From contig MU401601.1 in assembly GCA_022579005.1 (NCBI GenBank), forward strand, positions 31,762-95,761: DNA of 64,000 bases, read 5' to 3'. Source of the DNA: Poronia punctata. Its lineage: Eukaryota > Ascomycota > Sordariomycetes > Xylariales > Xylariaceae. Below the pieces are notes generated by a model. That model saw only the letters and a list, made by a program, of their open reading frames with translations. It had not been told where the DNA came from and did not search any database. Both the position numbers and the translations under genes were made by a program. Positions within the stretch are counted from its first letter, which is position 1, and every line of letters begins with the position of its first letter. Shown one piece after another: positions 7,331 through 53,102 of the stretch.

Positions 7331-7430
7331 AAAAATACATCACCTTGTTTTTAACTTCTAATTCCCCTTGCAGATCTTATACAGTCTTTTCTATCATCGG
7401 TAGTTACTATCTTTATATAGGTAGTTACAG

Positions 7431-28123: not shown

Positions 28124-30013
28124 CTAATTCTTTACACGTTTAAATAACAGATTCTTATGCTCATCCGGCACGATTAGCGGGCCAATCTCTATGTTGGGAT
28201 ACCGCTCCTTGCTCCCGTCGGCATTCTTGAAGTCGTAATCGAGGATTAACCGCACTAGAAGCATCTTCATCTCCTGGGCAGCGAAAAAGCGTCCAGGGCA
28301 GGCATGGCGACCGTAGCCGAAGAATAAGCTCTGCTCGTGGCTCGCGACGAATTGATGCCGAGCGTGGTCGGTCGCGCCGGCATCGGGCCGTGTCCGCCGG
28401 CGGTAATGCCTCAACCCGTCGAACTCGGCCGCATCGACGCCGTCTTGCCCGTAGTGCTCATTGTCCCGCATAATGGCCCGCGACGCGAGCTCGATGGTCG
28501 CGCCAGTCGGCACGCGGGTCCCTTGCGGTAGTGTCAGTCCGCGCTTCCCTACCACTCGGTGGAATGTCGTCGTTAGAGGCGGACTGAGCCGTAGCGACTC
28601 CTTCATGAAACTGTCTAGCTTGAACATCTGCTGCAGGGCGTGCGAGTTCATCTCGCCGCCGTGAGAGGCTAGGACTTCGCGGATTTCTTCCCGCAGCGGC
28701 CCTATGTATTCGGGTCGTACAGCGAGGTCGTACATTCTGGTAAGTTCTGTTAGCCAAGTCTTGCCTCGAACAAGGTAGGGTCAGGCTGCGCATACATATG
28801 GGTCATGGATTCACTCGTGGTGTGCACCGCCGCGAAAATGATTCCTAGCTGGATCTGGGCCATCTCAGCAGCCGTCACGATACCGCGGCCCTCGCTCTTA
28901 CGCATCAGAACCGACAGCATGTCATCGGGTGCTTGCTCGCCTCTCTTCTCGGCATCCAGTCTCGCCTGCACTAGGGGTTCGAAGAATCGGGCTGCGCTGG
29001 CTTCGCGGAGACGCAACCGGCGGACAGAGGCTAGTCGTGGAGCCAAGAAGGGCCGGAGAAGCGGATTCATTTGCTTGACCTCGACTTGGGCCGCAGACAC
29101 ATCGACAGCGTAGTTGATGGCATTGTCCAGGTACTCGGGGCTGCGGCACAGGCCTTCGCCAACGAAGACGCGGCCTGTGATCTTGGCGACCATGTTGGCG
29201 ATGGTCATGTAGATGGGCACCGGCGTCCAGTCGGAGCACTCGGGCATTTCGACTTTGAAGGCACTTTCGACCTCGTCTACGACGAGTGGGTTCAACCGAG
29301 CTGAAGCTTGTTAGACAGGTTCGAAATCACCAGCCTGGGCGGGGTAAGGGGCGAATTACCGAGGGCAGGCGTAAGCTCGGCCCGGACTGAGTGGGCAACG
29401 GCCGACAGGTCGGTCAGAACGCCGGTGTATTTGCTCTCGAGGATCTTTGGAATTGGAAGTCAGCGGGGGGGCAGGATATTTTGTGATGGACAAGTAACGA
29501 ACGCGCTTACCTTTGCCGCAGCCGGATAAAAGTTCAGGTCGGAGTCGGACAGCGTTCTCAGGTCACGCATAAACTTGGGTGGGATAACCACATTCTCGAC
29601 GTCTTGAACACGAATGTCAGCATCTTGAGGAAACTAAGCCGGCCCCTCAGCTAGCCAGTATTACGTACCATCCGACGTCGGCATGCGATAGGCCTCATCT
29701 TTAAACTGTGGCGCCCGTTAGCTCAAATCTCCAAAGTCTCATGGCTGTCAGATCCCACCTTTTGGTAACCAGCCTGGTACAGTTGGTGAGCGGTTTGCAG
29801 GAAGGCCTTGCGCTTCTCGTCGACGCTCGCATCTCCGTTCAAGACGGGAAGCTGGGCAAGCTGGGCGCGTAGTCGGGCCTTTGGCGAGAGGATAGTGAGA
29901 CGTAGTAAGAGGAAGACAAGCACGGCGGCAGTAGACAGGGCCGGGATGGGGTGAGCGATGGCCAGCGCGAGGGCTGTTTCGCCTTTATCTTGGATGAGCT
30001 GTAACACTGCCAT
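28124..30013 (-). CDS. Cytochrome P450 A (ent-kaurene-oxidase-like class)
   Basis: Six exons (30013-29759, 29705-29669, 29602-29511, 29444-29360, 29300-28796, 28736-28124) encode 528 residues. An N-terminal membrane anchor (about residues 18-45) places it on the ER. Family marks are the I-helix segment AAVHTTSES, the K-helix ExxR (KESLR) and the heme loop FFGYGRHACPGRFFA with Cys471. This heme-loop type is shared with fungal P450s of diterpene and related pathways, so it likely oxidises a terpene skeleton. The first ATG of the open frame (30145) is upstream; I chose 30013 because it directly precedes the hydrophobic anchor. Intron phases give the conserved joins GYQK-FKDEAYR, AAAK-ILESKY and THI-MYDLAVRP. 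It lies 1.3 kb downstream of the terpene cyclase on the same strand. Confidence 0.85.
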
Positions 30014-31316
30014 CCTGGACTTGGCCAAGAAACACAGACACACAGACACACAAACAAGAAGCACTGAAATGAAAGACACAGTTAGAGTCCCACGCGCAAC
30101 ACTTGAGAAAGAATTAAAGAAAAAAGGTTGAGAACAGCTTATCAAGACTTAATCGGCGCCTATACTATGCAAGGGCTCGGTCATTTTCCATGCTGTAGGT
30201 AAATCTTTTTTTTTTAGATTTCTATCTCGTCCCTCACTTTTTTTTTTGGCACCCCGATCTAACCCCCCGGCATGCATGCAGGGATGGGGCGGGTCGCCGA
30301 GAAGCCGGCACGCTGACAAGTGTGGTAAGGTGTGATCGCTGCCGGGGGTTGTGGGACGGGCAATTTCCCCAATAGGATACTCCCAGACACCTCCACCTAG
30401 CATCGATTATCTAAGCACTTTAAAGTTAATCGTGGCAATGTCGTATTCTCACAAGCCCGCGTTTCACACACTCTTTTAGGATACCGCGTTTAATCTAGGG
30501 GTTGCCGGCCTATTCGTCACCTGTTTGGCAGGAACCGCCTGGTGTCCTTGCCCCGTATAGGTACATACCCTGATTAAATCCTCTTATCGCCGCCCACGCC
30601 CAACTAGTCTGTCGGGCCGAGGAAGGAGCTACGTGTAGGTAGTCTAGGTCACAGCTCCAAAATTCTTGTTGTTTTGTCTTCTCTTGGCGGTCCAAATGTG
30701 GGCGCGTATTTCGGTGCAAGTCAAAAGTTCGGGGCTTGTGGTGATTAGGACTAGCTTTAATATTTACAGGATGTAGCTTCAGTTGGTTGTACAGTAGGTT
30801 ACGTAGTTGACGAACGTCACCAGCTGTGTGAAGAATCAATGTCGTAGGATTTTCCCATCTAGATGCATAATCGTGTTATTTTGATGCGAATCAACACAGG
30901 TTTCCAGCTCTTGCGAAATAAGATATACAACTAAGTCTAGGGTTAGGAAGGGATGACAAGAAAAACTAAACATTGGCAGCAGGAACGAAACCTGCGCATC
31001 TGTACTGTAGGTAGCTAGATTATTTCACCTCACTATAGTCAATTAAGAAATATGAATTAAATGAGTGTTCTCTACAGCAGGATTGCAAAGAGAAATGATT
31101 ACTTCTTATTCATGACCATGCCAAAAGATATCTATCTTGTAATGACGTGTTGTCGCTTGTCTATTGAAATAGCTGGCTAGCTAGCTAGCTACGAGTTTCT
31201 ACACAGAAAATGTTGCAATACATGGAAAAAAAGAAACAAACAAAAACAAACTGAACTACTTATGCATGCCCTTGCTAAATGAAAAGAAATAGAAATGGAA
31301 AGAGAATAATGCTATT
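30014..31316. other. Intergenic between terpene cyclase and P450 A
   Basis: Contains the promoter and 5' UTR of P450 A near 30,014-30,420 and the cyclase 3' flank. Poly-T tracts near 30,200-30,250 and a GCTA run near 31,172-31,192 are the only low-complexity features. No gene supported. Confidence 0.5.
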
Positions 31317-32925
31317 TTACGCCTTGACGGCCTGAGGGGGAGGAGCATGTTCCAAGAAAGAAGGATTCATGAGGACATCAATCTTTCGCAGATTTAGGAC
31401 TTGGTCGCCTTTGCTTCCAAAGTAACGTCCTGATCGGAAGCTGTTTTGATTTTTAATGTTAGTAGGGTTTTTTGAGTAAGTGGAAAAAGAAGCATTGGAG
31501 TAAGAAGTAGGGGAAAAACTTGCCTCCAGCTCAGATTCGCCTGCACTATATTCTGAATTCCCTGGATATACAACCGTACCTGCCTGTCGACGGATCCTCC
31601 CCACGAGGGTAGCGACCGGACGGCCTCTTCCCAGAGAGCGAAGCGAGAGTCTACCATGGCGGCGATCTCGTCAAATGCCTCTTGGGCTGAGGATCCGTTC
31701 ATTCGGCATACGGCTACCATGTTGAAGGGGCAGTTCTCGCTCTGTTTCGTCATGTTAGCAGGGGATGGTTATGAGATTTGGTGGATGTAGGTGAACGTAC
31801 CTCTTCCTTTCGGTAGGATAGAATGTCATTCATACTAAAATAAAAGTTAGTCAAGGGGGTTATGAGATGTGGTGATAGAAGAAATGGGGATAAAAAAACT
31901 CACAGCATGACGAATTCCGCACCGAGATCTTCCAGCGTTCGCACAATCGGATGCTCGAATACCTCGTCCGGCAAGTTGAGACTGTATGCGAACTCCACTA
32001 GGGGATACATGGGGAACACGCCGATGGACATGCGGCGCGTCTCGATCATCTCTTCTACGGATACCACTTTGTCGGTTACGTGGTCTTGCACGTGCTTCAA
32101 CGCGCCGGCGCAGTACGATTCCATCGCTTGGATGTATCGGCCTAGAAGGCCGCCCGAGCGCGATACATGCACCGGGGAGGTGTTGCTCGACTTTCTTCTT
32201 GTTCGTGCGGAGCCCTGACGTTGTGACATGTTAGAGGGCTTTTTTTTTTCTGGTGTTTGGTGATGTGGGTGGGTCGGGAAATGTAACATACCGAGGCTAG
32301 ACGCCTGAAGATGTCGTCGTGTGCCGTGACTACTGTCGGTTGTTGATGTGATGAGTGCGGCGTGTCGGGTCGCATGATGTTTAGGAGGTTGTTGATGATC
32401 TTTTCGGAACCGATGGGGTCTTCGGTTAGTTCGCCTTCGTCAAACACTGTTTTTTTGGTTGGTTAGTCTGGCCCTAGAGATATCAAAAAAGGTAGATGGT
32501 GTCTTTTCGTACTGTCATCGAAGAGGAAGACCTGGAAGACATTGTAGATTAGTATTTTTGCTTGTATGTTTGTTATAGAGTTGGAACTCACCCAGTTTCC
32601 CCAATCCGAGACTACGCGGAGCTTATCCCGCGGGCAGTGCGGTACAAGCACGGCACAAAAGTAGGAGAAATCGCAAATGTTGACTCGTCGATGTTGCTTG
32701 GGTGTGAGGCCCATGATGCTGTGAATCATGTTTGTTAGTATAAGAACATACTGGACTTGTGAGAATTTCAGAATCAACCAACCTTCGAAGCCATTCCTCC
32801 GACTCGGGCCGTACACTCTTGTAGTGACGGTTCAGAACAGGCTCCTTGACAAGGAAGCTCTGGTACATGTCCGGCAGCGTGACCATGACCCTGCGGTCAT
32901 CCTCTTTCTTGGTTATCTCGGGCAT
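31317..32925 (-). CDS. Class I sesquiterpene cyclase
   Basis: Eight exons (32925-32783, 32718-32592, 32531-32513, 32446-32292, 32214-31904, 31834-31801, 31741-31524, 31440-31317) give 376 residues, the normal size for fungal sesquiterpene synthases. The Asp-rich metal site WVFLFDDMFDEGEL (DDMFDE, 95-100), the second metal site NDILSYRKE (254-262, NSE type) and the C-terminal Arg341-Tyr342 pair (SGRYFG) are all intact. The expected reaction is ionisation and cyclisation of farnesyl diphosphate in the cytosol. There is no prenyltransferase domain, so the precursor must come from primary metabolism. Two oddities: a 19-nt microexon carries the first two aspartates, and the last intron (31441-31523) has a GC donor (GAG|GCAAGT). 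The product skeleton cannot be read from sequence. Confidence 0.9.
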
Positions 32926-34285: not shown

Positions 34286-36025
34286 TTAGGTAGTGTTGAA
34301 CCCCACCGGATAGGCCTTGATGCCCGATGTATTCTTCGGCACCACGATCGTGTGATCCTTTGCCGGCAGAACGCAGTTGACATCCGTGTCCTCATGCAGC
34401 TTAAACTGGACACGGCGGACTAGGTTGGCTGTGAGCATGTACATCTCGGCGGTTGCCATGCTAGTTGGGTCGCTGTTAGTATTTTTTATCTGTAAGATGA
34501 ATAAAACAGGGCAGACTTACTTGATTCCCAGGCAAGCGCGATTTCCCTTGAGGAAGAGCGCAAGATGGCTCTCCAAGTGCTCGCCTCGCTCGGCAGCGCG
34601 GATCCATCTTTGAGGATCGAATTTCCATGGGTCGGGGAATAGTTCCTCATTGGTGTGGACGAAATAGGTGGCTGTGCTGCAAGGAGTCTAGAAACCGGGG
34701 TTAACATGCCGAACCCAAAGAGAAGTATGGATTCAAGAGGGGAAGACACTTACTCCGGGAGGAATGGCCCAGTCCTTGTAGTGCAGAACGCGATCTGGCG
34801 CCACACGGGGATGACGTGTCAATGTTCCTAGCGATAGGCGGAGGCCTTCGTTGACAACACCTCTCTGTTTTCCGTTGTTAGTCACATGGGCGGGTTTTGC
34901 AAAGAGTTGGTTCTCTTAACTTACCAGCAGTGGCAGACTCTCTAGTACCGACAACGGCGGGCATTCGTTAGGGTCAGGCATGACGGCTTTGAGCTCCTCG
35001 AATAGGCTGTCAAAGATGGCAGGGTTGTCGATGAGGTAGAAAAGGGTGACACTCAAGCTGTACGCCGTGGTCTCGGTTCCGGCTGCGAGCACGACGAAAC
35101 CCTCGTCCTCGAGACGGCCTAGTGTGCGCTCCGCGGCAGGTAGCTCCGGGTTGGCCAGGGCTGCAAACATGTTCTCGTGCGGCGCCTTGGGTTCGACCGA
35201 GTTGAGTACGCCCAGGGCGAGATCACTGATAGTGCGGTGCGTGCGCAACACGGTGGCCGCCTGGGGGAACAGGTGGGAGACTAGGCCCGGAGGCATCTTC
35301 TTGGCATTGGAGAAGCGAATAGGGATGAACTTCAGCCAGTGGCCCATGGCCAACACGGACTGAGTTGCCTCGGACAGAATGTTACGGCCCGAGGCGTCAT
35401 CGAGACAGCCGATGGAGACACCGTAGGCGTAATGCGAGATGGTGTCGGCAGTGAAAGCGGCGGCGAGGGCAGTCAAACTAACATGCTTGCCAGCCTCTTT
35501 GGCCTCCCGCATGCGAAGGATGACGCGCTCGACCTTGTCCTGGATGATGGGCTGGATGTTGTTGATGGACCGCTTGGAAAAGAACTTGGTCAAGGGCTTC
35601 CTGCGCGCCTCGTGCAGTTCGTGCTCTACGGCGGCGAACATGGACTCGGTCACGCCTGTGGACCTCGTGAAGCGGGGGTCGCCATTGACCCGCTTGGGGT
35701 TTCCAGCATAGATCTCGCTGTAGAAGGCCGGATCACTGATGTGGAGCTCATGAGGTGTAATTCTCACGATGGGGCCTGCAGACGGTTAGAAAATTGCAGA
35801 GGACCGAAGGATGGAAAGCTCCATACCGTATTTCTTGTGTAAACGCTCAATCTCCCAGATAAGCTCTCCATCGCGAACAATGGACCAGTAAAACTCAAAC
35901 AAGTGCGTCGCAGCAGCGAACTTGGGACCAGGGAACTTGGCCAGAGGGTGGAAATAGAGGTTGTAGATGACTTTGCCTACGCGCCAAACGACAAAGGCCA
36001 AGGCCAGGCCGAGATAGAGATTCAT
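34286..36025 (-). CDS. Cytochrome P450 B (trichodiene-oxygenase-like class)
   Basis: Five exons (36025-35827, 35775-34925, 34864-34754, 34687-34521, 34460-34286) encode 500 residues. It has an N-terminal anchor (residues 1-25), the proline-rich hinge [10 protein letters not shown], the oxygen-binding I-helix AAGTETTA, ExxR (NEGLRLS) and the heme loop [11 protein letters not shown] with Cys439. It is a divergently transcribed paralog of P450 C: the four introns fall at equivalent places and exons 3 and 5 have identical lengths (111 and 175 nt). A role in oxidising the cyclase product at the ER membrane is inferred from context. The 675-bp gap to P450 C is probably a shared promoter. Confidence 0.9.
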
Positions 36026-36700: not shown

Positions 36701-38546
36701 ATGGATTTCAACGATTTGAAATACACTGCTCTTGATTATATCAACCAGTTCGAGCCACCTGCGCCAGTCCTACGAGCTGTCGCCATGTTGCCGACGGCCT
36801 TTGCGCTTGGCCTCGCCTATCTCGTGGTTCGAACCGTGTACCGCCTGTACTTCCATCCCCTCTCTCACATCCCCGGCCCCAAGATAGCGGCTGTCAGCCA
36901 TTTGTACGAGTTATACCACGATGCGATACGCGGTGGCATGTACATCTGGGAGGTGGAGAAGATGCACAAGAAATATGGTTGGTACTCCCGGTCCATGTCC
37001 ACTGTCTCTGTCGTCCTAATTTGCGCCATGCTAACCGACCATGTTTCACAGGCCCTGTAGTACGGATAAATCCCCGCGAGGTGCACATCAAGGATCCTCA
37101 CTTCTATGACGAGGTGTACGCGCCTGCATCGCGCAAGCGCGAGAAGGACGGCGCTTTCGTGGGCGTCTTTGGTTTCCCGCTATCCATGATCGCTACCGTC
37201 GGCCACGAGCACCACCGCATAAGACGCTCCCTGCTCAACGCCTTCTTTAGCAAGAAACAGGTCCAGGCTCTGGCCGGGTCAGTCCTGGCCGAGCAGGAGA
37301 ACAAGCTGATTGCGCGCCTGACGGAGGCTCACAACGAGGGAAGAACTGTGCGCCTCGATGACGCCTACGCCGCCCTGACTGCCGACACCATCTCACAGTA
37401 CTCGTGGGGCCGCAGCTCCGGCTTCCTCGACGACCCATCCTTCAAGAACGACATCCGCGCCGCCCTCGACGAGATCTCGCAGTACGTCCACATTGCCCGC
37501 TTCTTTCCCATCATGACGACCATCACGCGCGCATTGCCCCGACCGATCTTGCGCTGGCTGCGACCTGCTGCCACGGCCGTGCTGGACATGCAGGACATGG
37601 TCACGCAGTCGAGCGAGGAGAAGCAAGTGGTTGGTAGCCGCGGCACCGTGTTCGACGCCCTGCGCGACCCGAGCGTCTCACCCGAAGAGCGGTCCAAGGC
37701 CCGCATCGAGGAGGAAGGCCTGATCCTGGTCGTTGCTGGTACCGAAACCACGGCGCGCACACTGACCATTGCGTCCTATCACCTGTTCGGCAACCGGCCA
37801 CTACTGTTACGCCTGCGCGAAGAGCTCTGCACAATAATGCCCAGGCCCGATACCGAAGTCACATGGTCCCAACTCGAGCAACTGCCATTACTAGTGAGTA
37901 TCCCCCATCCTTGCCTGTCCAGCAATTCTCTGCATTCGTGGATATACATATTCACGACGGCTGGTCCTTGTAGAACGGTGTAGTCAACGAGTCGATCCGT
38001 CTCTCGTTCGGCCCCATCTTCCGCTCCACAAGAGTTGCCCCGACCGAGTCATTGGTATACAAGAAGACAGTGATCCCGCCCAAGGTACGTCATCTCTTTT
38101 TCCGCGTCAAGCGGATTCCTCTTCGTGATGCCTTACTAACGTGCCTTCCGCGACAGACGCCCATTAGCATGTCTACTTACTTTGTCCATATGGACGAGGA
38201 AATTTTCCCTGAGCCTGCGAGCTTCAAGCCCGAACGCTGGATCGAGTCCCAGGGTCAACATTTGACCAAGTTCATTACTGCGTTTGGCAAGGGAAGCAGA
38301 AATTGTCTCGGCATGAAGTGAGTGCATATATCGCCCTCCAAGATTTGCGCGCGCGACTAATCGTCTTCTAGCCTGGCGTATGCCGAATTGTACTTGACAC
38401 TGGCGGCCATGATCCGTCGGTTCGAAATCGAGCTGGTCGACGCCGGCCCGCATAGCATCCGCATCGAGCGCGAGATGGGTATCGGCCAGCCTATAAAGGG
38501 AGACTTTATAGTGCAGGCTAAGATCAAGAAGATCATTACAGAGTAA
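36701..38546 (+). CDS. Cytochrome P450 C (paralog of P450 B)
   Basis: Five exons (36701-36977, 37052-37893, 37974-38084, 38157-38317, 38372-38546) encode 521 residues. It has a hydrophobic anchor at residues 24-45, hinge [11 protein letters not shown]-helix VAGTETTA, ExxR (NESIRLS) and heme loop [11 protein letters not shown] with Cys460. Exon lengths 277/842/111/161/175 mirror P450 B (199/851/111/167/175), and the splice phases are identical, which shows descent from one duplicated gene. The two proteins share segments such as YFHPL, KMHKKYG/RLHKKYG and [19 protein letters not shown]. It is probably a second tailoring oxygenase of the same pathway, acting at a different carbon or on a later intermediate. 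Confidence 0.9.
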
Positions 38547-39176
38547 AATAATGCACGTTTTGTTGTTTCAATACCTTTGAGTTAAATACCCCACCATTTA
38601 CTTGTACCCAATCAATCATGCGGGTGACTAGAGAAAAACTGAAATGGGCGAGAGGCGGCGTACATACCACGACCACCACCATCATGATGAAATGTCCATA
38701 AACAATATAGAATTTTTAACTTTATAGTCTGAATTATTCGTGGTCATTTTATTGGTGATTCTTTGAAAGATTTTTGTGGTTGAGGGGATTGAGGTGGCTG
38801 TACACGTAGAAATATTTGCAAGAGGTTTGGCCCTTGGGGGTTTCGTCCTTCATTCTCGTTGCTCCAATTTATTATTTCACCCCTCGGTTAGTAAGTATGT
38901 GGGTCTAGACTACTTGATCTAACCAACTTTAAGCTAGTATGTACTACGCTTTTACTTGTACGAGAAATATTCTTACCTGAACCCCTGAGATGCTATTTCG
39001 TTGAATAATTGTGTGTACTAGTAATAAGGAGGTGGAAAGTAATGCCGGAATGTCCAGCCGCGTTTTGTTTCTTGGTTCTTGGTTCTTCTTTTTTCTTTTT
39101 TGTCTTGATGCTTGAGCTTATAGTTATAAATGTCTGATTGTAAGTTTCGCGCCATTACAAGTTTGTGGACTGAGTA
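38547..39176. other. Intergenic downstream of P450 C
   Basis: 3' flank of P450 C running up to the TA that borders the inserted element. No gene or repeat seen. Confidence 0.4.
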
Positions 39177-40142
39177 CAGTCGTTTTCAATCGAAGTGTCG
39201 GTGGAGCCACACCGCGCTAAATCGCAGTGTACCGTTTTTTCCAACCACCTCACTTTTTCCAATTTCCAACCTTTACACCACCTTTCTAGCCAAAAAGGTC
39301 GTTTTGAAGCCATCTCCATTCTTCAGAACACTATAACTACTTGTTTTCAAAGGCTGTATTATTTTAAAGCCATCAATGTGCTTTTTCCGGTACAAATAAG
39401 GTTACTAACGCGTATTGCACCTGTTTTTAACCAATGCAATTAACCCTACGTCATAGCCTCGCAAACCTGCGAAGAGACCAGTCAACCTACTGACCTGCGA
39501 AGAGACCAGTCAACCTACTGACCTGCGAAGAGACCTGCGAATAGACCTGCGAAAAGACCAGTCAACCTACCTACTTGCAAAAGGACCTGCGAATAGACCT
39601 GCCAACCTACCTACTTGCGAATAGACCTGCCAACCTACCTACTTGCGAATAGACTTGCGAAAAGACCTGCGAAAAGACCTGCGAAAAGACCAGTCAACCT
39701 ACCTACTTGCAAAAGGACCTGCAAATAGACCTGCCAACCTACCTACTTGCGAATAGACCTGCGAAAAGACCAGCCAACCTACCTACTTGCAAAAAGACCT
39801 GCGAATAGACCAGCCAACCTACCTACTTGCGAATAGACCTGCGAATAGACCAGCCAACCTACCTACTTGCAAAAAGACCTGCGAATAGACCTGCGAAAAG
39901 ACCTGCCAACCTACCTACTTGCAAATAGCTCAACCTATTGACTTGCAAATGACCTTATATATAGCCAAGCTAAAATATACGCCTTATTTTATCTAGGGAC
40001 ATGTTTATAATTAGAAAAGTCACATTTTTGGGCAGAAGGGTGGTGTAAAGGTTGGAAATTGGAAAAAGTGAGGTGAATGAAAAACGGTACACTGCGATTT
40101 AGCGCGGTGTGGCTCCACCGACACTTCGATTGAAAACGACTC
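39177..40142. mobile_element. Non-autonomous Tc1/mariner-like element (MITE) with 120-bp TIRs
   Basis: The first 120 bp (39177-39296) and the last 120 bp (40023-40142) are near-perfect inverted repeats, starting CAGTCGTTTTCAATCGAAG on the left and GAGTCGTTTTCAATCGAAG on the right. Both outer edges are flanked by TA (39175-39176, 40143-40144), the target duplication of Tc1/mariner elements. The 966-bp element has no transposase frame. Its middle (about 39,460-39,950) is a minisatellite built from variants of a 12-mer like GCGAATAGACCT plus CAACCTACCTACTT. It lies inside the terpenoid cluster between P450 C and the DFR-like gene and disrupts no frame. Confidence 0.85.
39464..39950. repeat. Minisatellite inside the MITE
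   Basis: Imperfect tandem array of two interleaved modules: GACCTGCGAATA/AAAA (12 bp) repeated one to three times, and CCAACCTACCTACTTGC as spacer. Higher-order units of about 40-75 bp repeat across roughly 490 bp. Array length probably varies among isolates. Confidence 0.85.
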
Positions 40143-40348
40143 TATTCACATCCAAACAGTCTAATTTAGCCCTACGGTTTAATATATAGTACCGAGTTTT
40201 AAGTAACCACCCAGTCCTCGCCAGTCCCGTAATTATAGTTAGACTAAAACAGCAGGGAAAGACCATGTAATTAAGTGCTTACGAGTAGGTAGGTAGGTAG
40301 GTTAACAGTTATTTTAGTGTCTGAGCTACCCTACCGGGCCGTCCCGCT

Positions 40349-41654
40349 TTACGCGGACGCCTTCCCGGAATCTTCCAACCACCGCAACCCCTCGACAGCA
40401 TCAGCTATCGACTCCTCAAGAGAGGTCCATCCTGGCCTTCCGAGCTCCTTCAAGATCCGCTCGGCCTCGGCCCGCGGCTCGATCTCATTCGGGTCCTCAC
40501 CACCGGAAAAGTCGGCGGGTATGCGCGCCAATTTGTCCGGGTCGTCGGCTAATAGCTTCCGGAGTATTCCCAGGATCATGTCCCAGTTGTAGCGCGATGC
40601 GAATCCGAATATTCGGCGGCCGCGCACGCTGTCGAGAATTGCGGCGGCTACGTGCAGACGGCCTATGTCTTGGACGTCGACGAAATATTCTGGGGAATTT
40701 GTTAGTTATGGTAGAGAGAATGAGGAGGGGAAAAAGGCGGGGGGGGGGGGGGGGTGCTTACGGCGGGGGACAAGACGGTGGTAATCTACTACCTGGCCTT
40801 GGTATAATAGCGCAACCATGCCGGCTGTGCTGGAGTACCCCTGGTTTACGGGATCTAGGGATTTGCCCAGGGTCATGTTTGGCAATACTAGAATTGATTA
40901 GCAAACGTCAGCAAAAAAGCGGATGCATTTTTCGGTGAAGAGAGTAAGTTGACAGAACTGACCCGTATTGACGACTATATCGGGTCGTCTCTCGGCGTTT
41001 TCCCGATAATATTTCCAAATAGCCTGCTCGGCCAACGTCTTACTAGCCGAGTACACGGCATGCGACCTCTCCGGCGTATACGGCGGCGGGGCCCAGGCTT
41101 CGACCACGGCCTGTTCATTGTAAGTCTCCTCGGTTACCACGATGCCCGGCTTGCCGGTCACGGCTAGCACGGCGGCACTACTCGATGAGCAGAAGACGAA
41201 TCGCTTCGTGCTGGGCTCGCTGTATGCCGCTTTGATTGCGTTTAGGGCAAAGTCCACGGCGCCGGGGATCACTTCGTTGGGATCGTGCGCTAGTGTCATT
41301 ATTGAGGCAGAGTGCACTACGGCTGATACGCCTGTTTTTTTTTGTCTCACGTGTTAGAAACATGGGTGGGGACGGGAACGGGACGGGACGGGACTTGCCT
41401 TTTACCGCCTCATCGAATGCGCCGGGGGCGGCCATGTCGCGTAGGGGAAATAGCTCGAATTGTCCCTTGCCATATTGCGAATCGAGTAGATTGGTCATCC
41501 AGACATTCTTGGCGGCATCCCGGACGGTGCCCCGGACCCGGAAGCCGCGTTCTAGGAATTGGTTGGCGATGTGTGAGCCGATGAGGCCGTTACATCCCGT
41601 TACGAGGACGGTGGACCCGGCCGGGATGGCTGAGTCTTTTGTGGCTGTGGCCAT
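40349..41654 (-). CDS. NAD(P)-dependent reductase, DFR/epimerase-like extended SDR
   Basis: Four exons (41654-41399, 41331-40963, 40887-40762, 40689-40349) encode 363 residues. The N-terminal Rossmann motif GCNGLIG (20-26) binds NAD(P), the active site is YSASK (Tyr179, Lys183), and the strand VSAVVHSAS is typical of dihydroflavonol-reductase-like extended SDRs. Fungal relatives reduce ketones or aldehydes of secondary metabolites. Intron 1 (41332-41398) uses a GC donor (AAAG|GCAAGT); the nearby GT alternative would put the next exon out of frame. Intron 3 contains a 16-G run. The gene is divergent from the SDR at 42410, sharing a 755-bp upstream region. The substrate is unknown; a role in carbonyl reduction of the terpenoid is inferred. 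Confidence 0.85.
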
Positions 41655-42409: not shown

Positions 42410-43561
42410 ATGCCCCGCACCGCCCCCTACGCCGAGCTATTCACGGACCCCAAGGGCCCTGGCGATATTCGCCCCACCGCGGCCAAGGTCATAGAGGACC
42501 AGGGCCTCGTCGACAGCCCCGACTGGAAAGGCAGAGTCGTTCTTATCACCGGCTGCTCGCCCGGAGGTGGCCTCGGACCCGAGACTGCCAAGGCCCTCCG
42601 TCTCACCGGCGCCGATATCTACATCACAAACCGAAACCTCGAGAGGGGCCAGCAGGTTGTCCAGGAGCTCTTGGCCGATGGAAAACAACGCGGAAAGGTC
42701 GAGGCCATCGAATTGGACCTGAGCTCGCTAAAGAGCATCCGTGCTGGCGCGCAGGACTTCCTCCAGAAGAGCGGAAACAAGCTCAACGTGTTGATCAACA
42801 ATGCCGGTAAGTACCCCTTTGTCTTGGCGCGTATGTGTTGGGCGCATATTTCTTTGCATTGCTAACCAAATGCTAGGTATCATGGCTCCTCCTCTAGGCA
42901 GGACCGAAGATGGATTTGAGCTGCAATTCGGCACAAACCATCTAGGTATGTTACCTCCAATCCTGTCTTCCAAGCAGGCCAGAGACTAACCATTTCTCTA
43001 GGCCACTTCTACCTCTTCAACCTAGTCAAGGACGCTCTCATCGCTTCGTCCACCCCCTCATTCAAGTCCCGTGTTGTCTCCGTGTCCTCGGGCGCGCACC
43101 GCAACACCCAAATCGACCTCGACGACCTCAACTGGGAGAAGCGCGAGTACCTCCCCCTCAAGGCCTACGGTCAATCCAAGTTGGCCAACGTACACTTCGC
43201 CAGCGAGGTCGACCGTCGGTACAAGGACCAGGGCATCCGCGCCAACGCGCTGCACCCCGGCGGCATCCTTACCCCGCTTGCCCGCTACCTCCCCTACGAA
43301 CGCGCCGAGGGTCTCAAGGAGATCCCCGAAGTCTACCGCTGGTTGATGGAGCCCCCGCAAGGTGCCGCCACGAGCACCTGGGCTGCCGTCGCCCGCGAGC
43401 TCGAGGACCGCGGAGCTCTCTATCTGGACGAGGTTGCCGAAGCTGAGGAGGTCGTGCCCGAGCCATACCATCTGCCTGGTTACGGCCCCCAGGCCTTCAA
43501 CCCCGAAGTGGAGAAGAAATTGTGGGAGGCTAGCTTGAAGCTAGTTGGTCTCTCGGAGTAA
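42410..43561 (+). CDS. Short-chain dehydrogenase/reductase (retinol-dehydrogenase-like)
   Basis: Three exons (42410-42806, 42877-42945, 43002-43561) give 341 residues. The classical SDR set is present: TGCSPGGGLG cofactor loop (47-56), NNAG, Ser184/Ser185 and YGQSK (Tyr211, Lys215), with the FELQFGTNHLGHF segment that marks the retinol dehydrogenase/WWOX-like branch. It likely interconverts an alcohol and a ketone or aldehyde on a lipophilic substrate using NAD(P)H. The ATG at 42410 is the first in frame. Introns are 70 and 56 nt with clear GTAAGT/GTATGT donors and CTAAC branch sites. The DFR-like reductase is divergent to it and the acyltransferase follows downstream. Confidence 0.9.
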
Positions 43562-44186: not shown

Positions 44187-45740
44187 ATGACCGCCACCAT
44201 GATGCCAACGGCCAGAAAGATGGGGTTCAAGACTTTGAGCACGTGGAACCAGATGGCGCCCCGTGTCTATACGGGCCACTGCTTCTGTTTCCCCTATCTC
44301 CCTAACGGCAATGCCCAGGCGCTGGAAAGCCATCTGCGCACCACTCTAGATGCCTTGGCCAGTCGGGTCCCGCTGCTTCGGCACGTCATCAAGCCTCACC
44401 CAGACCATCCGGACAAGATAGTTCTGGTCCCCAGCGGCGACGATGCCCCGGCCATCCCGCTCAAGGTCACGGACGAGCGCCGTTCTTTCGGCTGGACATA
44501 CCGCCAGCTTCAGAGCCGGAGCTTCCCGGCCCAAGCCTTTGTCGGGAACGCTTTTGAGCTTCCACCCTCGCTGCCCACTCCCGACCGCGGCGTCCCTCTC
44601 TTTGGCGTCGACGCGAAACTCATAGAAGGCGGCCTGCTGATAGTCAATCGCCTACATCACTCCGTTGCCGACGGCGTTGGCCGTACAGCCATCACCAATG
44701 CATTCGCTTCCCTGACGCGCGACCCGAGCGCACAAGTCCCGCCCATCGATATCGACGCTGATATATCCCCGGCTGCGGAACCAGATCTCCCGGCCGCAGA
44801 GCTAATGGCCCAGACTCCCGAGTACCGCCTTCTCGACGCGCCATACGGCCCTACTATCCCTTATCTCGGCCCGCCCGGCCCGCCCTTTGGTAGCATTCGC
44901 CGCACAGGCCGCACTTTCGTCGTGGCGCCCCACGCGCTAGCACAGCTCCGCCAGCAACTCACAGGCAATAGTGGCGCTAAGCCACCCTCGTCATTTACTA
45001 GTCTTGCTGCCTTGACATGGGCACACGCGACGAAAGCTCGTCTTTCTGCCATTGAGGGCTCGGCTGCTGCTACCGTCGATAGTAATACCAATACCGGCGC
45101 GGCGCAAAGCATAGCAGAGGACGGATCGGAGTACTGGGAGCAAGGAAAGGGCAAAGGCGAGACGGCGCGCATCGTCACTGTGGTCAATTGGCGCGGACGC
45201 GCCTTTAAAAACGTGCCTGAGTTGACGGCTACTGCTGGCAACGCCGTGGCTATCCCCGCCGCCGATGTTGCGCTAGGGACTGTGCTGGCTGCGGCTGGCC
45301 ATCACAAGGATGCGAACGGGTCTGGCATCGAGGCGCTCCGTGCTGTGGCGCAGGCCATCGAGGCGTCTGCGAGAACTGTTGATGATGGGTTTGTAGCGAC
45401 TAGGACGGCCCTAGCTCGTCGGATACATGATTTACGCTTTCTCGGGATTGAGGGGGATCCCAGAGAGGCCAAGGCGTTTGCTTTCAATACGTGGAGACAT
45501 TTGTATACGGAGACACCTGGTTGGGTATTGCCTGGTGTACCGCAGCAGGGGGATGATGGAGTGCAGCCGGATGCGGTCAGGAGGTCCCAAAAGGAGTGGG
45601 ATATGGGCTATGGCTTCATCTTACCTCAGAGAAAGGGCTTTGATGGATTGGAGGTGCTGGTGACGCTTGAGCCGGAGGCCATGGATGCTTTGGTGGCTGA
45701 TAAGTCGTGGAGGAGTTGGATGAAGGAGGTGATTGAATAG
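44187..45740 (+). CDS. BAHD/trichothecene-acetyltransferase-like acyltransferase
   Basis: A single exon encodes 517 residues, the usual size for fungal members. The catalytic HxxxD motif is intact as HHSVADG (His158, Asp162), and DMGYGF near residue 476 stands in place of the DFGWG structural motif. Family members move an acyl group (often acetyl) from CoA to a hydroxyl or amine in the cytosol. In this cluster it would esterify a hydroxyl made by a P450. The ATG at 44187 is the first after an in-frame stop at 44157. The N-terminus is slightly shorter than in some relatives, but the conserved NQMAPRVY segment is present. No intron is needed, unlike most neighbours. Confidence 0.88.
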   Translation: MTATMMPTARKMGFKTLSTWNQMAPRVYTGHCFCFPYLPNGNAQALESHLRTTLDALASRVPLLRHVIKPHPDHPDKIVLVPSGDDAPAIPLKVTDERRSFGWTYRQLQSRSFPAQAFVGNAFELPPSLPTPDRGVPLFGVDAKLIEGGLLIVNRLHHSVADGVGRTAITNAFASLTRDPSAQVPPIDIDADISPAAEPDLPAAELMAQTPEYRLLDAPYGPTIPYLGPPGPPFGSIRRTGRTFVVAPHALAQLRQQLTGNSGAKPPSSFTSLAALTWAHATKARLSAIEGSAAATVDSNTNTGAAQSIAEDGSEYWEQGKGKGETARIVTVVNWRGRAFKNVPELTATAGNAVAIPAADVALGTVLAAAGHHKDANGSGIEALRAVAQAIEASARTVDDGFVATRTALARRIHDLRFLGIEGDPREAKAFAFNTWRHLYTETPGWVLPGVPQQGDDGVQPDAVRRSQKEWDMGYGFILPQRKGFDGLEVLVTLEPEAMDALVADKSWRSWMKEVIE

Positions 45741-46715
45741 AATGTAATTATATCTGTCTTTTAGAATTATAGAAAGCGAGCGAAAGTAGTTCAATGCTAA
45801 GAGTGTCCTCTTTTATTTTCGTTCGGTTTGTGTCGTGTAAATGTGTCTTCGTTATCCTGCCGCCTTATCGTAGGTCAAGAGAATGTGCTTTGCTCCCTAC
45901 TATTGAAAGATGATTGAAGAGCGACAACAAGACATAATTGTCATATGTCAAGTCCCAACAGCTTTTTCATTTGCCATTGTTTGGACTACCTTAGGCAAAA
46001 CTCCAACCGGAACTTGCAACTGAGAAACGCGTAAATCAGACACGTCAATTCAACGCGTCATAACATACCATATCGCCCATTGAAGCAGTCTCAGCCATCG
46101 TGCAGCAATATACTTTTCGCAGGCAACAGTTTAGCAGTTAGACGTCTAGAACCGAAGTTCTGGTCGGTCAAGACGTCCTCTGGTCAGTGGTAAGTGAAGA
46201 GGTAAATACCTACCTTTTCCTTACAGCCTGACTCCCGACACTTGGTAGCTGCCAGCTGCATGCCCACAGCACAGCCTGCCCCGGTCCTGCCACGCGAAGC
46301 ACCACAAATTCTCAGCTGAAACATTGCACTAGCCAGCTCTACACGCTAAGCCCTAACGGGACAGGCTCGTATATCGTGAACGCCTTCCTCACAGTGAGCT
46401 GAGAATTTGCGGTGCCGTCACGCCACAGCTAAGAACGCACTTTCTTTGGACGCGCACCCCAATGACATTTGCCAATCATAATTGTATTGCCTACAGCGAC
46501 GCATTTCTACTCCAATAGTTGCAGACCCGCAAGTGCGATAGGCAAGGTGTCACATTCTCGCCCCTATTAGAATTGTCAACCAATAAGGATGATTAACCTT
46601 GGCCGACTAGCCAAGTGCTGTGAAGCAATTAAGAACTAACTAGTAACAACGTCTAAATACAATAAAAAAAAAACACCTGCGCCGCCAACAGCCTGTGGTT
46701 CTACAACCGCAAAAA
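45741..46715. other. Intergenic between convergent genes, with hairpin element
   Basis: Convergent 3' flanks of the acyltransferase and the FAD oxidase. The only structure recognised is a 19-bp inverted repeat near 46,300-46,415, listed separately. Confidence 0.5.
46299..46415. repeat. Small inverted-repeat (hairpin/MITE-like) element
   Basis: GCACCACAAATTCTCAGCT (46299-46317) pairs with AGCTGAGAATTTGCGGTGC (46397-46415), with 18 of 19 positions complementary, around a 79-nt loop. No clear target duplication is seen. It could be a tiny MITE or a structured 3' region. Confidence 0.5.
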
Positions 46716-48497
46716 CTAGGACTGGACGATGGGGTTGTAATACCGGAACTTGTTCAACGGGTCGTACGCCTCCTTCAGGGCGGTCAACCGTTCCAGACGC
46801 CACGAGTCGTAGCCATAGATGGACTCCAGAGACTCGGTACCGTTGGCGTAGTTGACATAGGTAACAACGTTGACGCCCGGTTGACCGGCGTCCCACATGT
46901 CGCGAATGTCGGCCGCCCACTGGTTAGCCACATCAGTTAGGTGGGCATATTCAGGGCGCACCAGGACGTTGACGACACTAGGGTTAGGATATCTATCAGC
47001 ATACGGTCGTCATTGGGAAAGCGGGTATTGAACTGGGTCTGCTTACTTGTTATGGTTATATTCGCGCCAAGCGTAGGCCGAGTCTTCGTCAGCGACGGCT
47101 TTCATACCGGCGTTGGCGTAACCCTCGTGCGTGACGCTGCCCAATAGCTCGGGGTATCTGTCAGCGTAGTCGTTGTACAGCTCGTATAGCTGGCGCTCAG
47201 CTGTGACGTTGTATTCGATCAGGGTAGAGGTCGCTGAGATCCAAGTGTTGTTCTTGTAGCACGCGCCCGAGTCCAAGTTGGTGCCTTGGATCACCGAGAT
47301 GCCTGGCAAGGTCGTGTCCCCCGACTCGTTATAGTAGGCAGGGATGGCGTTGAAGGGGGCCAGAATCGCCTCCGCTTCCTCGGCAGAGCCGCGCCACGCA
47401 AAGTTCCAGTTTATGACAGCCTGTGGAGATGTTCATGTTAGGGGCTTGAAGCACAATATGGTTGCTTGATGGGATATCACTCACCCTGTCGCTGATGGAC
47501 GCGTTCTTCTCAAAGGTGCCAACGTTCAAGCCCATTCCGAGCGGCGTCGTGCCGTTATCGGACTTGTGGAACTTGATGATCTCTTCGAAGATCTGCTCGA
47601 GTTTATCGTCGGTCCAGATGTAGTTGTGGTAGTGCCATGTGTCGACTAGTCTCGGGTGGATCTTGAGCTCAAAGCTGGTGACGATGCCAAAGTTGTGGCC
47701 GGCGCCTTGCATGCCCCAGAAGAGGTCGGCGTGGCTGGTCGAATTGACCCGGATCGCTGTTCCGTTGGCAAGCACAACGTTGAGGTTGACAATGTTGTCG
47801 CTGATGAGGCCGTACAAGCCTTCGTTACGACCGTGGCCGCCGCCTAGACCGGGACCCATCATGCCGACGCAGTCACAGCTACCAGTGGCTAGTACCGATG
47901 TTAGCATTCCGCTTTGCTAACATTATCTAAGAGGAGGACCTACTGGCAACAAAGCCCAGGTCCCACAAGTATTCCATGACCTGTCCATCGTATGTGCCGC
48001 CTTGGAACCAGGCAGTCTTGTTGTCGGACTGGACGTCGATGTTCTGAAGCGGGCTCAGATCAATCATGAGGCCCTGGAAGGTAGCGGTAGCGGAGGCATG
48101 GCCGTGAGCACGGTTAACGGCCAAGAAGTCGATACTGTTCTCGTTCGAGTACGCGACCTGATCCCTGTTAGTTCGCGTTGCTAACCTTAGCAGTATCGTG
48201 AACAAGACTTACTGTGGTAGCGATATCATCCTCTGTTCCCGGCTGTACGACGATCTTGACATCGGGCACAGCATAGTTGGTATAACGCTCGGTGGCACTT
48301 GCGAAGCGCGAATCTTCCGGCCCAAATATGGAGGCCTCGGCAGACAGCAGCTTTCCAAGCTCGGTCGCGACGGTTGTGACGTCTAAGTCACTGCGCGTGA
48401 AGGGAGTGCGCCGGAAGTAGCGAGGAATGGCTTCGCCGGCTGCAATGGACGGCAGCACGGCGAGGACGAGCGAGGCTAATGAAGCGAATGACTTCAT
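46716..48497 (-). CDS. Secreted FAD-linked oxidoreductase (berberine-bridge-enzyme type)
   Basis: Five exons (48497-48213, 48157-47944, 47888-47485, 47420-47047, 46992-46716) give 517 residues, typical for this family. An N-terminal signal peptide (about residues 1-21, ending AAG) and several N-glycosylation sequons (for example NGT, NST, NAS) suggest secretion or an ER/vesicle location. The FAD-binding half has the RAHGHA region, a candidate covalent His, and [18 protein letters not shown], where the Cys-containing strand suggests possible bicovalent FAD. The C-terminal half ends in [11 protein letters not shown], a classic BBE motif. These enzymes oxidise alcohols or C-H bonds, or drive ring closures, with O2. 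It is divergent from the SnoaL-like gene across 1.7 kb and convergent with the acyltransferase. Confidence 0.9.
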
Positions 48498-50244: not shown

Positions 50245-50718
50245 ATGGCCGACCAGACTTTGATTTTGGACCTTCAGCGCCGACTACAGAGGCTCGAGGA
50301 CAAGGATGCCATCGCCTCCCTCATGTACCGATATGGCAAGATGGCCGACAGCCACAGATGGGAGGATTACGCGGCCTGCTTTGCCGAGGACGGCGTCGTG
50401 CGGTTCGACGACTGGGACGATGTGGTCGGGAGGGAAAAGATCGCCGCCCTCATCGGTGGTGGTCTGAGCAATTTCCAGGGTCTCCAGCATTCTTTCTCCA
50501 ATATCCAGGTCGACGTCGACGGCGATAAGGCTACGGGTACCTGCTATCTCTGGTTTGCCGCTACTATCGATATGACGAAGCCGCACGAGTTCCAAGGGTT
50601 CGGTGGCCCGTATGAAATTACTTTTGTTCGCACGGCGGAGGGCTGGAAAATATCGACGTTGAAGTTGAGGAAGATTTGGACGCAGAGTACCGATTCGGCG
50701 AAGCCTATTGGGGGTTGA
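50245..50718 (+). CDS. SnoaL-like (NTF2 fold) protein, possible dehydratase or cyclase
   Basis: A single exon encodes 157 residues. The opening ALASLMYRYGKMAD-type helix (here ASLMYRYGKMAD) and the strand order ending in WKISTLKLRKIW match the SnoaL_4/NTF2-like fold. The early Asp and the LxHSFSN-type His (QHSFSN) sit where scytalone-dehydratase-like relatives have catalytic residues. Members act as dehydratases, isomerases, cyclases or hydroxylase partners in secondary metabolism. There is no signal peptide. Adjacency to the FAD oxidase and the AflR-like regulator suggests it is part of the terpenoid pathway. Its exact reaction cannot be read from sequence, and a non-catalytic binding role is possible. 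Confidence 0.8.
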   Translation: MADQTLILDLQRRLQRLEDKDAIASLMYRYGKMADSHRWEDYAACFAEDGVVRFDDWDDVVGREKIAALIGGGLSNFQGLQHSFSNIQVDVDGDKATGTCYLWFAATIDMTKPHEFQGFGGPYEITFVRTAEGWKISTLKLRKIWTQSTDSAKPIGG

Positions 50719-51478
50719 ACAAGGGTACATATTATTGATGGAAGAGCAGGATATGGCGCTGCCAGTGGACTGGGGCTATGTTTCGGAAAAAAGCAGGCCT
50801 TGTCTGCGAAGTTGGAGATATCGTGGGAGAAAAAAAAAGGGGGGGATTCAGGAGGTCTACAATGCAACAAAGGACACTATGAGCCGAAGTTTTGGGATGA
50901 GGATTGGTTGCTACCACTAGCATTACCCTTAATCTTGTAGGTAATGGCGGAATGTAGGGGGCAACATATTGTGCGGCCTTCTTTAAATGTAGGCTACGCG
51001 TTCAGTCTCAGGGGCTAGGGTTCCTTTTCGGAGAAGTGTACTATGTCAATCAGGTCTCTCGAAAAATTACAAGTCTGAAAATATGTCAAAATTCTCAAAG
51101 TCAAGTGGTGAATTCGTAGTTGGCTAAAGTTCCTTGCGTAGATCCCGTCACATGTAAGCTGCCAGTCATCTTTTCACAAATCGCGTCTTCCATATGTTTA
51201 CACCCAATGTTAGGCAAATTAGAGCTAAAGTTTTATATATGTCTTATTGCGGATGAAAAATCATACCGTGCTCGCCTGCGTTTATTCGTCATCTCTGCGA
51301 AATCATATCTATCCTATCCTCTAAAACATAATAAAGACAACAATAATCGTATAACACGTAATAAACTGATGAGTGCCACTTTTGATATATCCGGAACCCC
51401 CATACCATGCGTCTTCTAGTTCCTCTTGGACACGATTGATCAAACCCCAACGCCTTCCCCATTTTGCCGATTAGTAAT
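50719..51478. other. Intergenic between convergent genes
   Basis: 3' flanks of the SnoaL-like gene and the regulator. No further gene recognised. Confidence 0.45.
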
Positions 51479-53102
51479 TTAGTTAGACGGCAACTCGTTC
51501 TCTCCGGAGGGTTCCAGCCCCGCCTCGCGCAACATCTCCCGCAACGCCTTGCTGCACACACCCAGTCGTCGACTCATGGGACCAGACGACGTGCACGCCG
51601 CTACATGTCGCAGCTGTTGTGTAAGGTCGTACAATTGCAACAACTGGAAGCGTAGCAGCCCCGCGACGACGAAGAGGTACTCGTCAGGTGCGTCGACGTT
51701 GTACACCCGTCCGTCCTCACCGGGCGCTGGCGTGTCTGGTGGACCCCGTAGTAGGAGCCACGGTGCCGTCCCGGATGAGCCCGGCCTCAGGTCGCTGGTG
51801 CTGCTGCTTCTGCTCATGCTTCTCTCGCCATTGCTATTAAGCCCCATGGCGCAGGCCTCACCTACGCGCCGACACACCCGCACTAGCTTGTCTACTAGGA
51901 TGGCGAGAATCATCATGTTCTCTGCCCGGCTCGTGCAGGCTGCGCACTGCAGCATCGCGGCTCCGCGGCCTAATGCTTCTTTATGTGCTGCCATGGCCCC
52001 GTCCAGTGACATTAGATCGTGTCCGTCCACGATGGACTCTATCTCGTCGACCAATACCACTAGACGCCGCAGACACCAGCATGCTGCCCCGTCGTCGTCG
52101 TCGTCCTCCTCTTCGTCGTCTTCGTCTACTTCGTCGCCGTAGTTTGTAAGGTTGAGGGCCTTGCTTGAAGGACCTGCCGTGGTGGGCGCTGCGATGGGTG
52201 ATATGTCTAGTGACGTCGGCACCCACCCGTTCGACTCCCATGTATCAAACGCCTCCCAGGAATCCACGCCCGCTAGCATGTCCAGATGTGAAGGTGTCAC
52301 GCATGCAGGCCGCTTGCCCATATCTGAGGTTGTATAGTTGTTTTCTAGAATCGACCCGGGCGAGGTTGCTCCGGATGATCCCATCAGGTTCATGTTATTG
52401 CCTCCTAAAGAGTCCATGAACGGCATCATGAAGTCGTCCACGTCCATGTCCATTTCTGACCCCACCAGTGACGGCATCTTGGATGAGTCCCCCGTCACCG
52501 TGGTGTCTTGGCTTATGGGTGTCGACGTGGTTTCCGACATGGCTGTGTCATGACTCTTGTCGCTCGGCACCTCGGATGGCGGCGCGCTACTAGTTCCCTC
52601 CTCGGCTTGTTTTGATGACTTTCGCGACCATCGCGCCTTTTTTCCTGTCGCCGGAGGTGATGATGATGATGATGTTGTTGCGGCTTCTTCGGCCGTCTGC
52701 TGCTGCTGGTCCGATGCCGATGCCGATGAAGTTGCGGCGGCGCCGGTACTAGCTCCTTTCGATTTCCGCCGGCTACTTTTGCCGGAGCCGGAGGTTGTGG
52801 TTTCATATATGCACTCTCGTCCCTATTAAACCAACACGGAATTCCGAGTTAGATTTTGATTTTTACGGCGTAGCAAGAACGCTCTGATTGGGGGAGGTGG
52901 TAATGGCGTTTTCGAATGCACGTACCGATGAAATGCAGCGCTCGCAGCCTCCGACTACCCAGATGCATTTTACTTTCCTGGCCCGGCAGTTGGAGCAGGC
53001 TTGCAATCCGGTTCTCTTCGCCGTCACGGGGTCGAACCCGACGGGCAGCTTGGTCAACGTCTCCCATCCGCCTTTACTCGATGGCTTCCAGCTGAGAAAC
53101 AT
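51479..53102 (-). CDS. AflR-like Zn2Cys6 transcription factor
   Basis: Two exons (53102-52926, 52822-51479) encode 506 residues. The binuclear zinc cluster is perfect (C-x2-C-x6-C-x6-C-x2-C-x6-C, Cys36, 39, 46, 53, 56, 63) and needs the 103-nt intron removed to supply the sixth cysteine. A Ser/Gln/Ala-rich linker follows, then an acidic run DEVDEDDEEEDDDDDGA. The C-terminal AflR-type domain has CWCLRRL, a long helix and LQCAACTSRAENMM. Such proteins bind TCGN5CGA-type sites and switch on their own clusters, so this is the probable pathway activator. An in-frame upstream ATG at 53183 would add 27 residues; the intervening sequence is rich in CAACAACTACAAG-type leader, so I prefer 53102. Confidence 0.9.

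What the first reader, a model, noticed from the sequence alone, without database searches (positions are those of the whole stretch)
28124..53102. Candidate undescribed sesquiterpenoid gene cluster (ten genes)
In 25 kb there are a class I sesquiterpene cyclase with intact metal sites, three P450s, a DFR-like reductase, an SDR, a BAHD-type acyltransferase, a secreted FAD-linked oxidase, a SnoaL-like protein and an AflR-type regulator. No PKS, NRPS or prenyltransferase is present. The botrydial cluster (one cyclase, three P450s, an acetyltransferase, a Zn2Cys6 factor) is the nearest logic I know, but the FAD oxidase, SnoaL-like protein and DFR-like enzyme are extra. I cannot match the set to a named pathway.
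Basis: partly seen in the sequence, partly recalled or inferred. Interest (0 to 1): 0.9.

Follow-up and report, generated by a model that had tools for sequence, protein, structure and literature searches.

The report
Probable punctaporonin gene cluster of Poronia
A dung fungus carries a ten-gene cluster that very probably makes an oxygenated sesquiterpene, most likely the punctaporonins, known antibiotics for which I found no gene cluster in the open papers I could search.

Summary
Ten intact genes lie at 28124-53183: a class I sesquiterpene cyclase with both metal sites, three P450s, a DFR-like reductase, an SDR, a TRI101-like acyltransferase, a secreted FAD oxidase, a SnoaL-like protein and a Zn2Cys6 regulator; 'AflR-type' is not supported. 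The window is Poronia punctata, first source of the punctaporonins, caryophyllene-type sesquiterpenes. The cyclase belongs to a clade of Xylariales and allies, separate from botrydial's BOT2. Cyclase, one P450 and the SnoaL-like protein lie on contigs of equal length in other fungi; in Xylaria curta and X. polymorpha the cyclase and SnoaL gene numbers differ by two; Pestalotiopsis, a punctaporonin genus, has both. The two other cyclase loci here with two or more P450s nearby are aristolochene synthases. Best reading: punctaporonin pathway, confidence 0.6; the cyclase product is untested. The SnoaL-like protein (dehydratase-like fold) may ionise an allylic alcohol and close the third ring. The right border is open: the contig ends with the window.

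The parts
28124..30013 (-). P450a, 528 aa, 6 exons, heme motif FGYGRHACPG
   Evidence: gene model; PF00067 E 7.5e-35
31317..32925 (-). Sesquiterpene cyclase, 376 aa, 8 exons, last intron GC-AG
   Evidence: equals P0001; PF19086 E 1.2e-41
34286..36025 (-). P450b, 500 aa, 5 exons, 42% identical to P450c
36701..38546 (+). P450c, 521 aa, 5 exons, CYP58-like (47% to a protein named CYP58D1), divergent from P450b across 675 bp
39171..40148 (.). Repetitive element with inverted terminal arms and inner tandem repeats, lying between P450c and DFR; not a pathway gene
   Evidence: 21 arm matches in the genome, this element's two included
40349..41654 (-). DFR-like reductase, 363 aa, 4 exons, first intron GC-AG; nearest solved: aldehyde reductase II
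   Evidence: 1ujm E 3e-75
42410..43561 (+). Short-chain dehydrogenase, 341 aa, 3 exons
44187..45740 (+). TRI101-like acyltransferase, 517 aa, single exon
46716..48497 (-). FAD-linked oxidase, 512 aa, 5 exons, N-terminal signal-like stretch (by eye)
50245..50718 (+). SnoaL-like protein, 157 aa, single exon, single copy in the genome by tblastn-type search
51479..53183 (-). Zn2Cys6 regulator, 533 aa, 2 exons; start may be 53102

Best explanation
This is a sesquiterpenoid biosynthetic cluster of Poronia punctata, most likely the one that makes the punctaporonins (punctatins). Shown: ten intact genes, and co-location of the cyclase, P450c and SnoaL-like genes in other fungi. Inferred: the cyclase closes farnesyl diphosphate 1,11 through humulyl and caryophyllenyl cations and releases a caryophyllene; the three P450s add the three hydroxyls of punctaporonin B (ring-fusion C-1, an allylic position C-4 or C-6, and C-14); the SnoaL-like protein ionises the allylic alcohol so that C-4 and C-8 join across the nine-membered ring, giving the tricyclic isomeric allylic alcohols (A, D, E, F); the two reductases and the FAD oxidase adjust oxidation level; the acyltransferase acylates a hydroxyl; the Zn2Cys6 protein controls the cluster.
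For: Punctaporonins A, D-F are from P. punctata; punctaporonins are also reported from Pestalotiopsis, Hansfordia, Cytospora and Stromatoneurospora. Tree: 15-row clade, SH-aLRT 100. BOT2, a relative, passes through the caryophyllene cation and makes minor beta-caryophyllene; of its product-shaping residues W118, F138, Y211, F and Y are kept here and W is L. Of 9 other cyclase loci in the genome, the two with two or more P450s within about 11 kb are aristolochene synthases; the only family paralogue, C15, showed no P450 motif in the 30 kb read. SnoaL model: pLDDT 89.9, closest solved folds include dehydratases. Precedent: an FAD oxidase beside a caryophyllene synthase oxidises caryophyllene in Hypholoma.
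Against: Cyclisation mode cannot be read from sequence: guaia-6,10(14)-diene synthase 9wf7 scores as well as BOT2, and a protein named (+)-eremophilene synthase (P0068) is 42% identical. W118 is replaced by other residues throughout the family: W occurs in 2 of 99 aligned rows, BOT2 and 9wf7, so its loss is not specific to this clade. SnoaL relatives were named in only 5 of 13 other clade species and P450c relatives in 3 of 13 (P450c list shows 120 of 939). Most clade species (Xylaria, Hypoxylon, Ustulina, Nemania, Diaporthe) were not named as caryophyllene sources in anything I read. Equal contig length is indirect, and weak on megabase contigs. Gene order differs: six genes separate cyclase and SnoaL here. 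P450a, P450b, DFR, SDR, acyltransferase, FAD oxidase and regulator were not tested for linkage. I read of no acylated punctaporonin from P. punctata itself. Atypical caryophyllene synthases exist and could escape the Pfam search.
Confidence: 0.6

Rival explanations
1. A cluster for another 1,11-derived sesquiterpenoid (koraiol/caryolane, presilphiperfolane, humulane or protoilludane type) that is not a punctaporonin, made by the same logic of cyclase, P450 oxidation and acylation.
For: The sister branch of the clade holds Fusarium rows, and Fusarium STC4 makes koraiol, a caryophyllene-related alcohol; the clade contains genera not named as punctaporonin sources in what I read.
Against: P. punctata is known for punctaporonins and I found no second suitable locus among the 9 other cyclase loci. 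Which Fusarium row is STC4 could not be verified.
Confidence: 0.2
2. A 1,10-derived (guaiane, eremophilane or similar) cluster; punctaporonins are made elsewhere in the genome, perhaps by an atypical synthase.
For: 9wf7, a guaiadiene synthase, matches as well as BOT2; P0068 is named (+)-eremophilene synthase; an atypical synthase makes the naematolin caryophyllene.
Against: 9wf7 and BOT2 both lie outside the branch of this cyclase; aristolochene-type loci C1 and C109 already account for 1,10 chemistry in this genome.
Confidence: 0.12
3. The ten genes are two neighbouring units: cyclase with three P450s on the left and, beyond the repetitive element at 39171-40148, a set of unrelated metabolic genes on the right.
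For: The element separates P450c from DFR by 1.8 kb; linkage of DFR, SDR, acyltransferase, FAD oxidase and regulator is untested.
Against: SnoaL, on the right, shares contigs with the left-hand cyclase in 5 of 5 genomes and with P450c in Hypoxylon crocopeplum (412,301 bp) and X. acuta.
Confidence: 0.08

Closest known systems
Botrydial cluster (Botrytis cinerea; BOT2)
   Same: Logic: one class I cyclase, three P450s, an acetyltransferase and a Zn2Cys6 factor (make-up as given in the finding, not fetched). Cyclases are homologous (8h6q, E 4.4e-51).
   Different: BOT2 is not the orthologue (31% over 318 columns); W118 is L here. SnoaL-like protein, FAD oxidase and DFR-like reductase are extra.
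Koraiol synthase STC4 of Fusarium
   Same: 1,11-closing cyclase giving a caryophyllene-related alcohol; Fusarium rows lie in the sister branch.
   Different: I could not verify which Fusarium row is STC4; no comparable tailoring set was in the passages read.
Naematolin genes of Hypholoma (caryophyllene synthase Hfas344 plus FAD oxidase)
   Same: Caryophyllene-type product and an adjacent FAD oxidase acting on it.
   Different: Basidiomycete and an atypical synthase; no SnoaL partner in the passages read.
NTF2-fold dehydratases (scytalone dehydratase, bile-acid 7-alpha dehydratase, LdpA)
   Different: 9-29% identity in the listed rows; ketosteroid isomerases and designed binders score nearly as high; a shared fold shows no function.

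Membership tests
Class I terpene synthase (PF19086) | Aspartate-rich and NSE metal motifs in an intact domain | tested here: met
   PF19086 E 1.2e-41; DDMFD from 95, NDILSYRKE from 254; frame equals P0001
Botrydial-type cluster | Cyclase is a BOT2 orthologue | tested here: not met
   BOT2 groups with 9wf7 outside the 48-row branch with this cyclase (support 96, quick tree)
Punctaporonin (caryophyllene) pathway | Cyclase makes a caryophyllene | not testable with these tools
   Needs expression and GC-MS
Punctaporonin (caryophyllene) pathway | Cluster core present in known producer genera | tested here: inconclusive
   Poronia and Pestalotiopsis NC0098 have cyclase and SnoaL; Seiridium cupressi has SnoaL; no Cytospora or Hansfordia row listed; also present in genera not named as sources
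Punctaporonin (caryophyllene) pathway | Enough oxygenases for three hydroxyls | tested here: met
   Three P450s and an FAD oxidase; three hydroxyls in punctaporonin B deduced from punctaporonin H being 2-acetoxy-B, C17H26O5
Eremophilane cluster | Aristolochene-synthase-type cyclase | tested here: not met
   None among the 60 of 76 PDB matches shown, while loci C1 and C109 match it at E 2.6e-90 and 2.6e-39
AflR-type regulator | Zn2Cys6 plus AflR domain | tested here: not met
   Zn_clus only; no AflR match at E up to 10
SnoaL_4 / NTF2 superfamily | SnoaL_4 profile and NTF2 fold | tested here: met
   PF13577 E 5.3e-31; model pLDDT 89.9, top matches NTF2-fold
TRI101/BAHD acyltransferase | HxxxD and DFGWG motifs in a Transferase domain | tested here: inconclusive
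   PF02458 and PF22664; HHSVADG present, DMGYG in place of DFGWG (by eye)

The most novel reading that the evidence does not exclude
The cyclase and the SnoaL-like protein are a dedicated pair: the cyclase makes caryophyllene and, after allylic hydroxylation, the NTF2-fold protein acts as a second, metal-free cyclase that ionises the allylic alcohol and forms the transannular C4-C8 bond, so that one cluster yields both bicyclic and tricyclic punctaporonins. The same pair would underlie the punctaporonin and pestalotiopsin family across Xylariales and allies.
Probability: 0.3. Interest if true: 0.75.

Novelty: new member of a known kind. Interest (0 to 1): 0.58.

Why it matters
Punctaporonins have been known since 1984 (reference list seen), yet I found no genes for them in the open papers searched. 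If the assignment is right, the cyclase, the oxygenases and a probable ring-closing or allylic-rearranging partner can be tested one by one, and the same core marks candidate clusters for the pestalotiopsin and punctaporonin family in Pestalotiopsis, Xylaria and Apiospora. A cyclase with a dedicated SnoaL-like partner would be a useful genome-mining mark for caryophyllene-type clusters.

Tried and rejected
Orthology to botrydial's BOT2: rejected by the tree. Eremophilane type: rejected for this cyclase. AflR-type regulator: no domain support. A cluster-wide regulator site: a scan for TCGN5CGA and CGG-type pairs upstream of the genes gave scattered matches, no control was run, no conclusion. 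W118 as a clade mark: dropped, since W is absent from nearly the whole family. Identity of the Fusarium rows as STC4: not verified; the paper that might tell was out of reach and another is not held. TRI5 (PF06330) and PF03936 searches of the genome found nothing, but rang in no control genome, so they show no absence. Rfam: no match. NCBIfam: only weak bacterial terpene-synthase matches below cut-off. PMC12903903 held none of the residues asked for. My first cyclase model skipped the GC donor and an intermediate exon bound was wrong; both mended. The C15 paralogue model is probably mis-spliced at its 3' end and was used only as one tree row. Tree rows: 49 of 97 cyclase hits, plus C15 and 4 PDB stretches; quick method, SH-aLRT only.
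Full report
WHAT IS THERE. I modelled each gene with a small splice-aware program trained on this window and checked frames and splice sites. Ten intact genes lie between 28124 and 53183: P450a, sesquiterpene cyclase, P450b, P450c, DFR-like reductase, SDR, TRI101-like acyltransferase, secreted FAD oxidase, SnoaL-like protein and Zn2Cys6 regulator; Pfam agrees for all ten. The cyclase model equals a deposited protein over 376 aa once the last intron is read with a GC donor. Gaps between neighbours are 0.6-1.8 kb. P450b and P450c are divergently transcribed across 675 bp and 42% identical. To the left lie a kinase-like gene, an aldo-keto reductase and a leucine-rich-repeat protein, beyond a gap of about 2.7 kb with a membrane-protein-like frame at its far side. 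To the right no gene was modelled above threshold in 53.2-64 kb, and the contig ends at the window's last base, so the right border is open.

WHOSE IT IS. Cyclase and P450c match proteins labelled Poronia punctata at 100%; the SnoaL protein matches at 100% on a contig of the same length, 99,868 bases, which is longer than the 95,761-base contig held here, so assembly or strain may differ. [quoted passage not shown] Related punctaporonins are reported from Hansfordia (PMC4113805, parts 1 and 2 of 4 read), Cytospora (PMC5674490, 12 of 15 passages), Pestalotiopsis and Stromatoneurospora (PMC7558325, passages). Pestalotiopsins, related caryophyllenes, are named from Pestalotiopsis, and caryophyllenes from Seiridium, in PMC10808731 (passages).

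THE CYCLASE. Its best solved relatives are BOT2 (8h6q, E 4.4e-51) and a guaiadiene synthase (9wf7, E 4.2e-50). In a quick maximum-likelihood tree of 54 rows it falls in a 15-row clade (SH-aLRT 100) of Poronia, Ustulina, Xylaria, Hypoxylon, Nemania, Pestalotiopsis, Apiospora, Diaporthe and an unnamed Xylariaceae; the sister branch (94) holds Fusarium, Colletotrichum, Pyricularia, Periconia and others; BOT2 and 9wf7 lie outside. BOT2 passes through the caryophyllene cation and makes minor beta-caryophyllene (PMC11228982, 4 passages). Its residues W118, F138 and Y211 shape the product (PMC11756643, passages). By an offset of 33 between chain and paper numbering, which places all three letters correctly, the Poronia enzyme has L, F and Y there; but W is found in only 2 of 99 aligned rows, BOT2 and 9wf7, so this is weak evidence. 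The family holds both 1,11- and 1,10-type enzymes, so the product remains an inference.

CO-LOCATION ELSEWHERE. The protein database gives contig lengths. Among named genomes other than Poronia where both a clade cyclase and a SnoaL relative were listed, 5 of 5 agree in contig length: Xylaria curta (10,016; gene numbers g6353 and g6355), X. polymorpha (123,953; g3318 and g3320), X. acuta (941,835), Pestalotiopsis NC0098 (2,472,340) and Apiospora marii (5,463,509, through a truncated cyclase row that is 89% identical to the longer A. marii row). Cyclase and P450c agree in 3 of 3 (Hypoxylon trugodes, X. acuta, A. marii), and P450c and SnoaL in H. crocopeplum and X. acuta. The SnoaL search scored 46 candidates and returned 28, of which 25 (the window's own included) are at least 49% identical: a small, specific family; it is single-copy in this genome. 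Against: of 13 other species in the cyclase clade, SnoaL was named in 5 and P450c in 3; the P450c list shows only 120 of 939 matches.

RIVAL LOCI IN THE SAME GENOME. PF19086 finds nine other cyclase loci. I read about 10 kb on each side of eight of them (C103 is cut by its contig end) and 30 kb around C15. A P450 heme-motif scan, which found all three window P450s, and a Pfam P450 search, which scored only 92 of 211 candidates, place two or more P450s within about 11 kb only at C1 and C109; both cyclases match aristolochene synthase (E 2.6e-90 and 2.6e-39). C323 has one P450 about 6 kb away and C103 one about 14.5 kb away; the C103 cyclase is nearest to terpene cyclase 6. C15 is the only family paralogue (48-49% on two exons) and sits beside glucan-synthase-like and hydrolase-like genes without a P450 motif.

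HOW IT PROBABLY WORKS. Inferred steps: FPP to caryophyllene; three P450 hydroxylations giving the C-1, C-4 (or C-6) and C-14 oxygens seen in punctaporonin B (deduced from punctaporonin H being its 2-acetoxy derivative); ring closure between C-4 and C-8, which I read from the quaternary carbon shifts of punctaporonins L and M, giving isomeric allylic alcohols; final redox and acylation. The SnoaL-like protein is the candidate for the ionisation and ring-closing step: its model (pLDDT 89.9) is an NTF2 fold whose best matches include a putative scytalone dehydratase, bile-acid 7-alpha dehydratases and LdpA, with Y30, D35, H82 and N86 invariant or nearly so across 24 relatives. Ketosteroid isomerases and designed binders score nearly as well, so fold alone does not fix the reaction. 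An FAD oxidase beside a caryophyllene synthase is known to oxidise caryophyllene in Hypholoma (PMC7019648, 9 passages).

COMPARISON AND NOVELTY. It works like other fungal sesquiterpenoid clusters and resembles botrydial's in logic, but it is not a botrydial-type cluster by descent. I found no described cluster for punctaporonins or pestalotiopsins in the listings; this covers open-access papers only, and MIBiG was not available. I therefore file it as a new member of a known kind; the conserved cyclase-SnoaL pair is its unusual side.

Noticed in passing
window 39171-40148: Element with about 130-base inverted terminal arms and inner 12/28/40-base tandem repeats between P450c and DFR; 21 arm matches in the genome, with pairs about 1 kb apart on C62, C125 and C46 and about 4.3 kb apart on C136 and C266, perhaps longer relatives.
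   Followed up: partly
window 1-8000 and L021: Very AT-rich stretch left of the cluster: GC 0.16-0.18 in the first 8 kb and 0.29 in the 10 kb before the window; mutation of repeats (RIP) is a guess.
   Followed up: no
window 31441-31523 and 41332-41398: Two GC-AG introns in one cluster, in the cyclase and the DFR-like gene.
   Followed up: partly
P0100, P0220: Diplogelasinospora grovesii, placed outside Xylariales (recalled), has P450c and SnoaL relatives at 81% and 77% identity, closer than most Xylariales rows; possible horizontal transfer.
   Followed up: no
G000 C1 about 31-47 kb and C109 about 27-45 kb: Two aristolochene-synthase loci with P450s nearby, candidate eremophilane clusters of the same fungus.
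   Followed up: partly
window 10379-11080: Frame matching raffinose synthase/Sip1 (PF05691, E 1.4e-39), left of the cluster.
   Followed up: no
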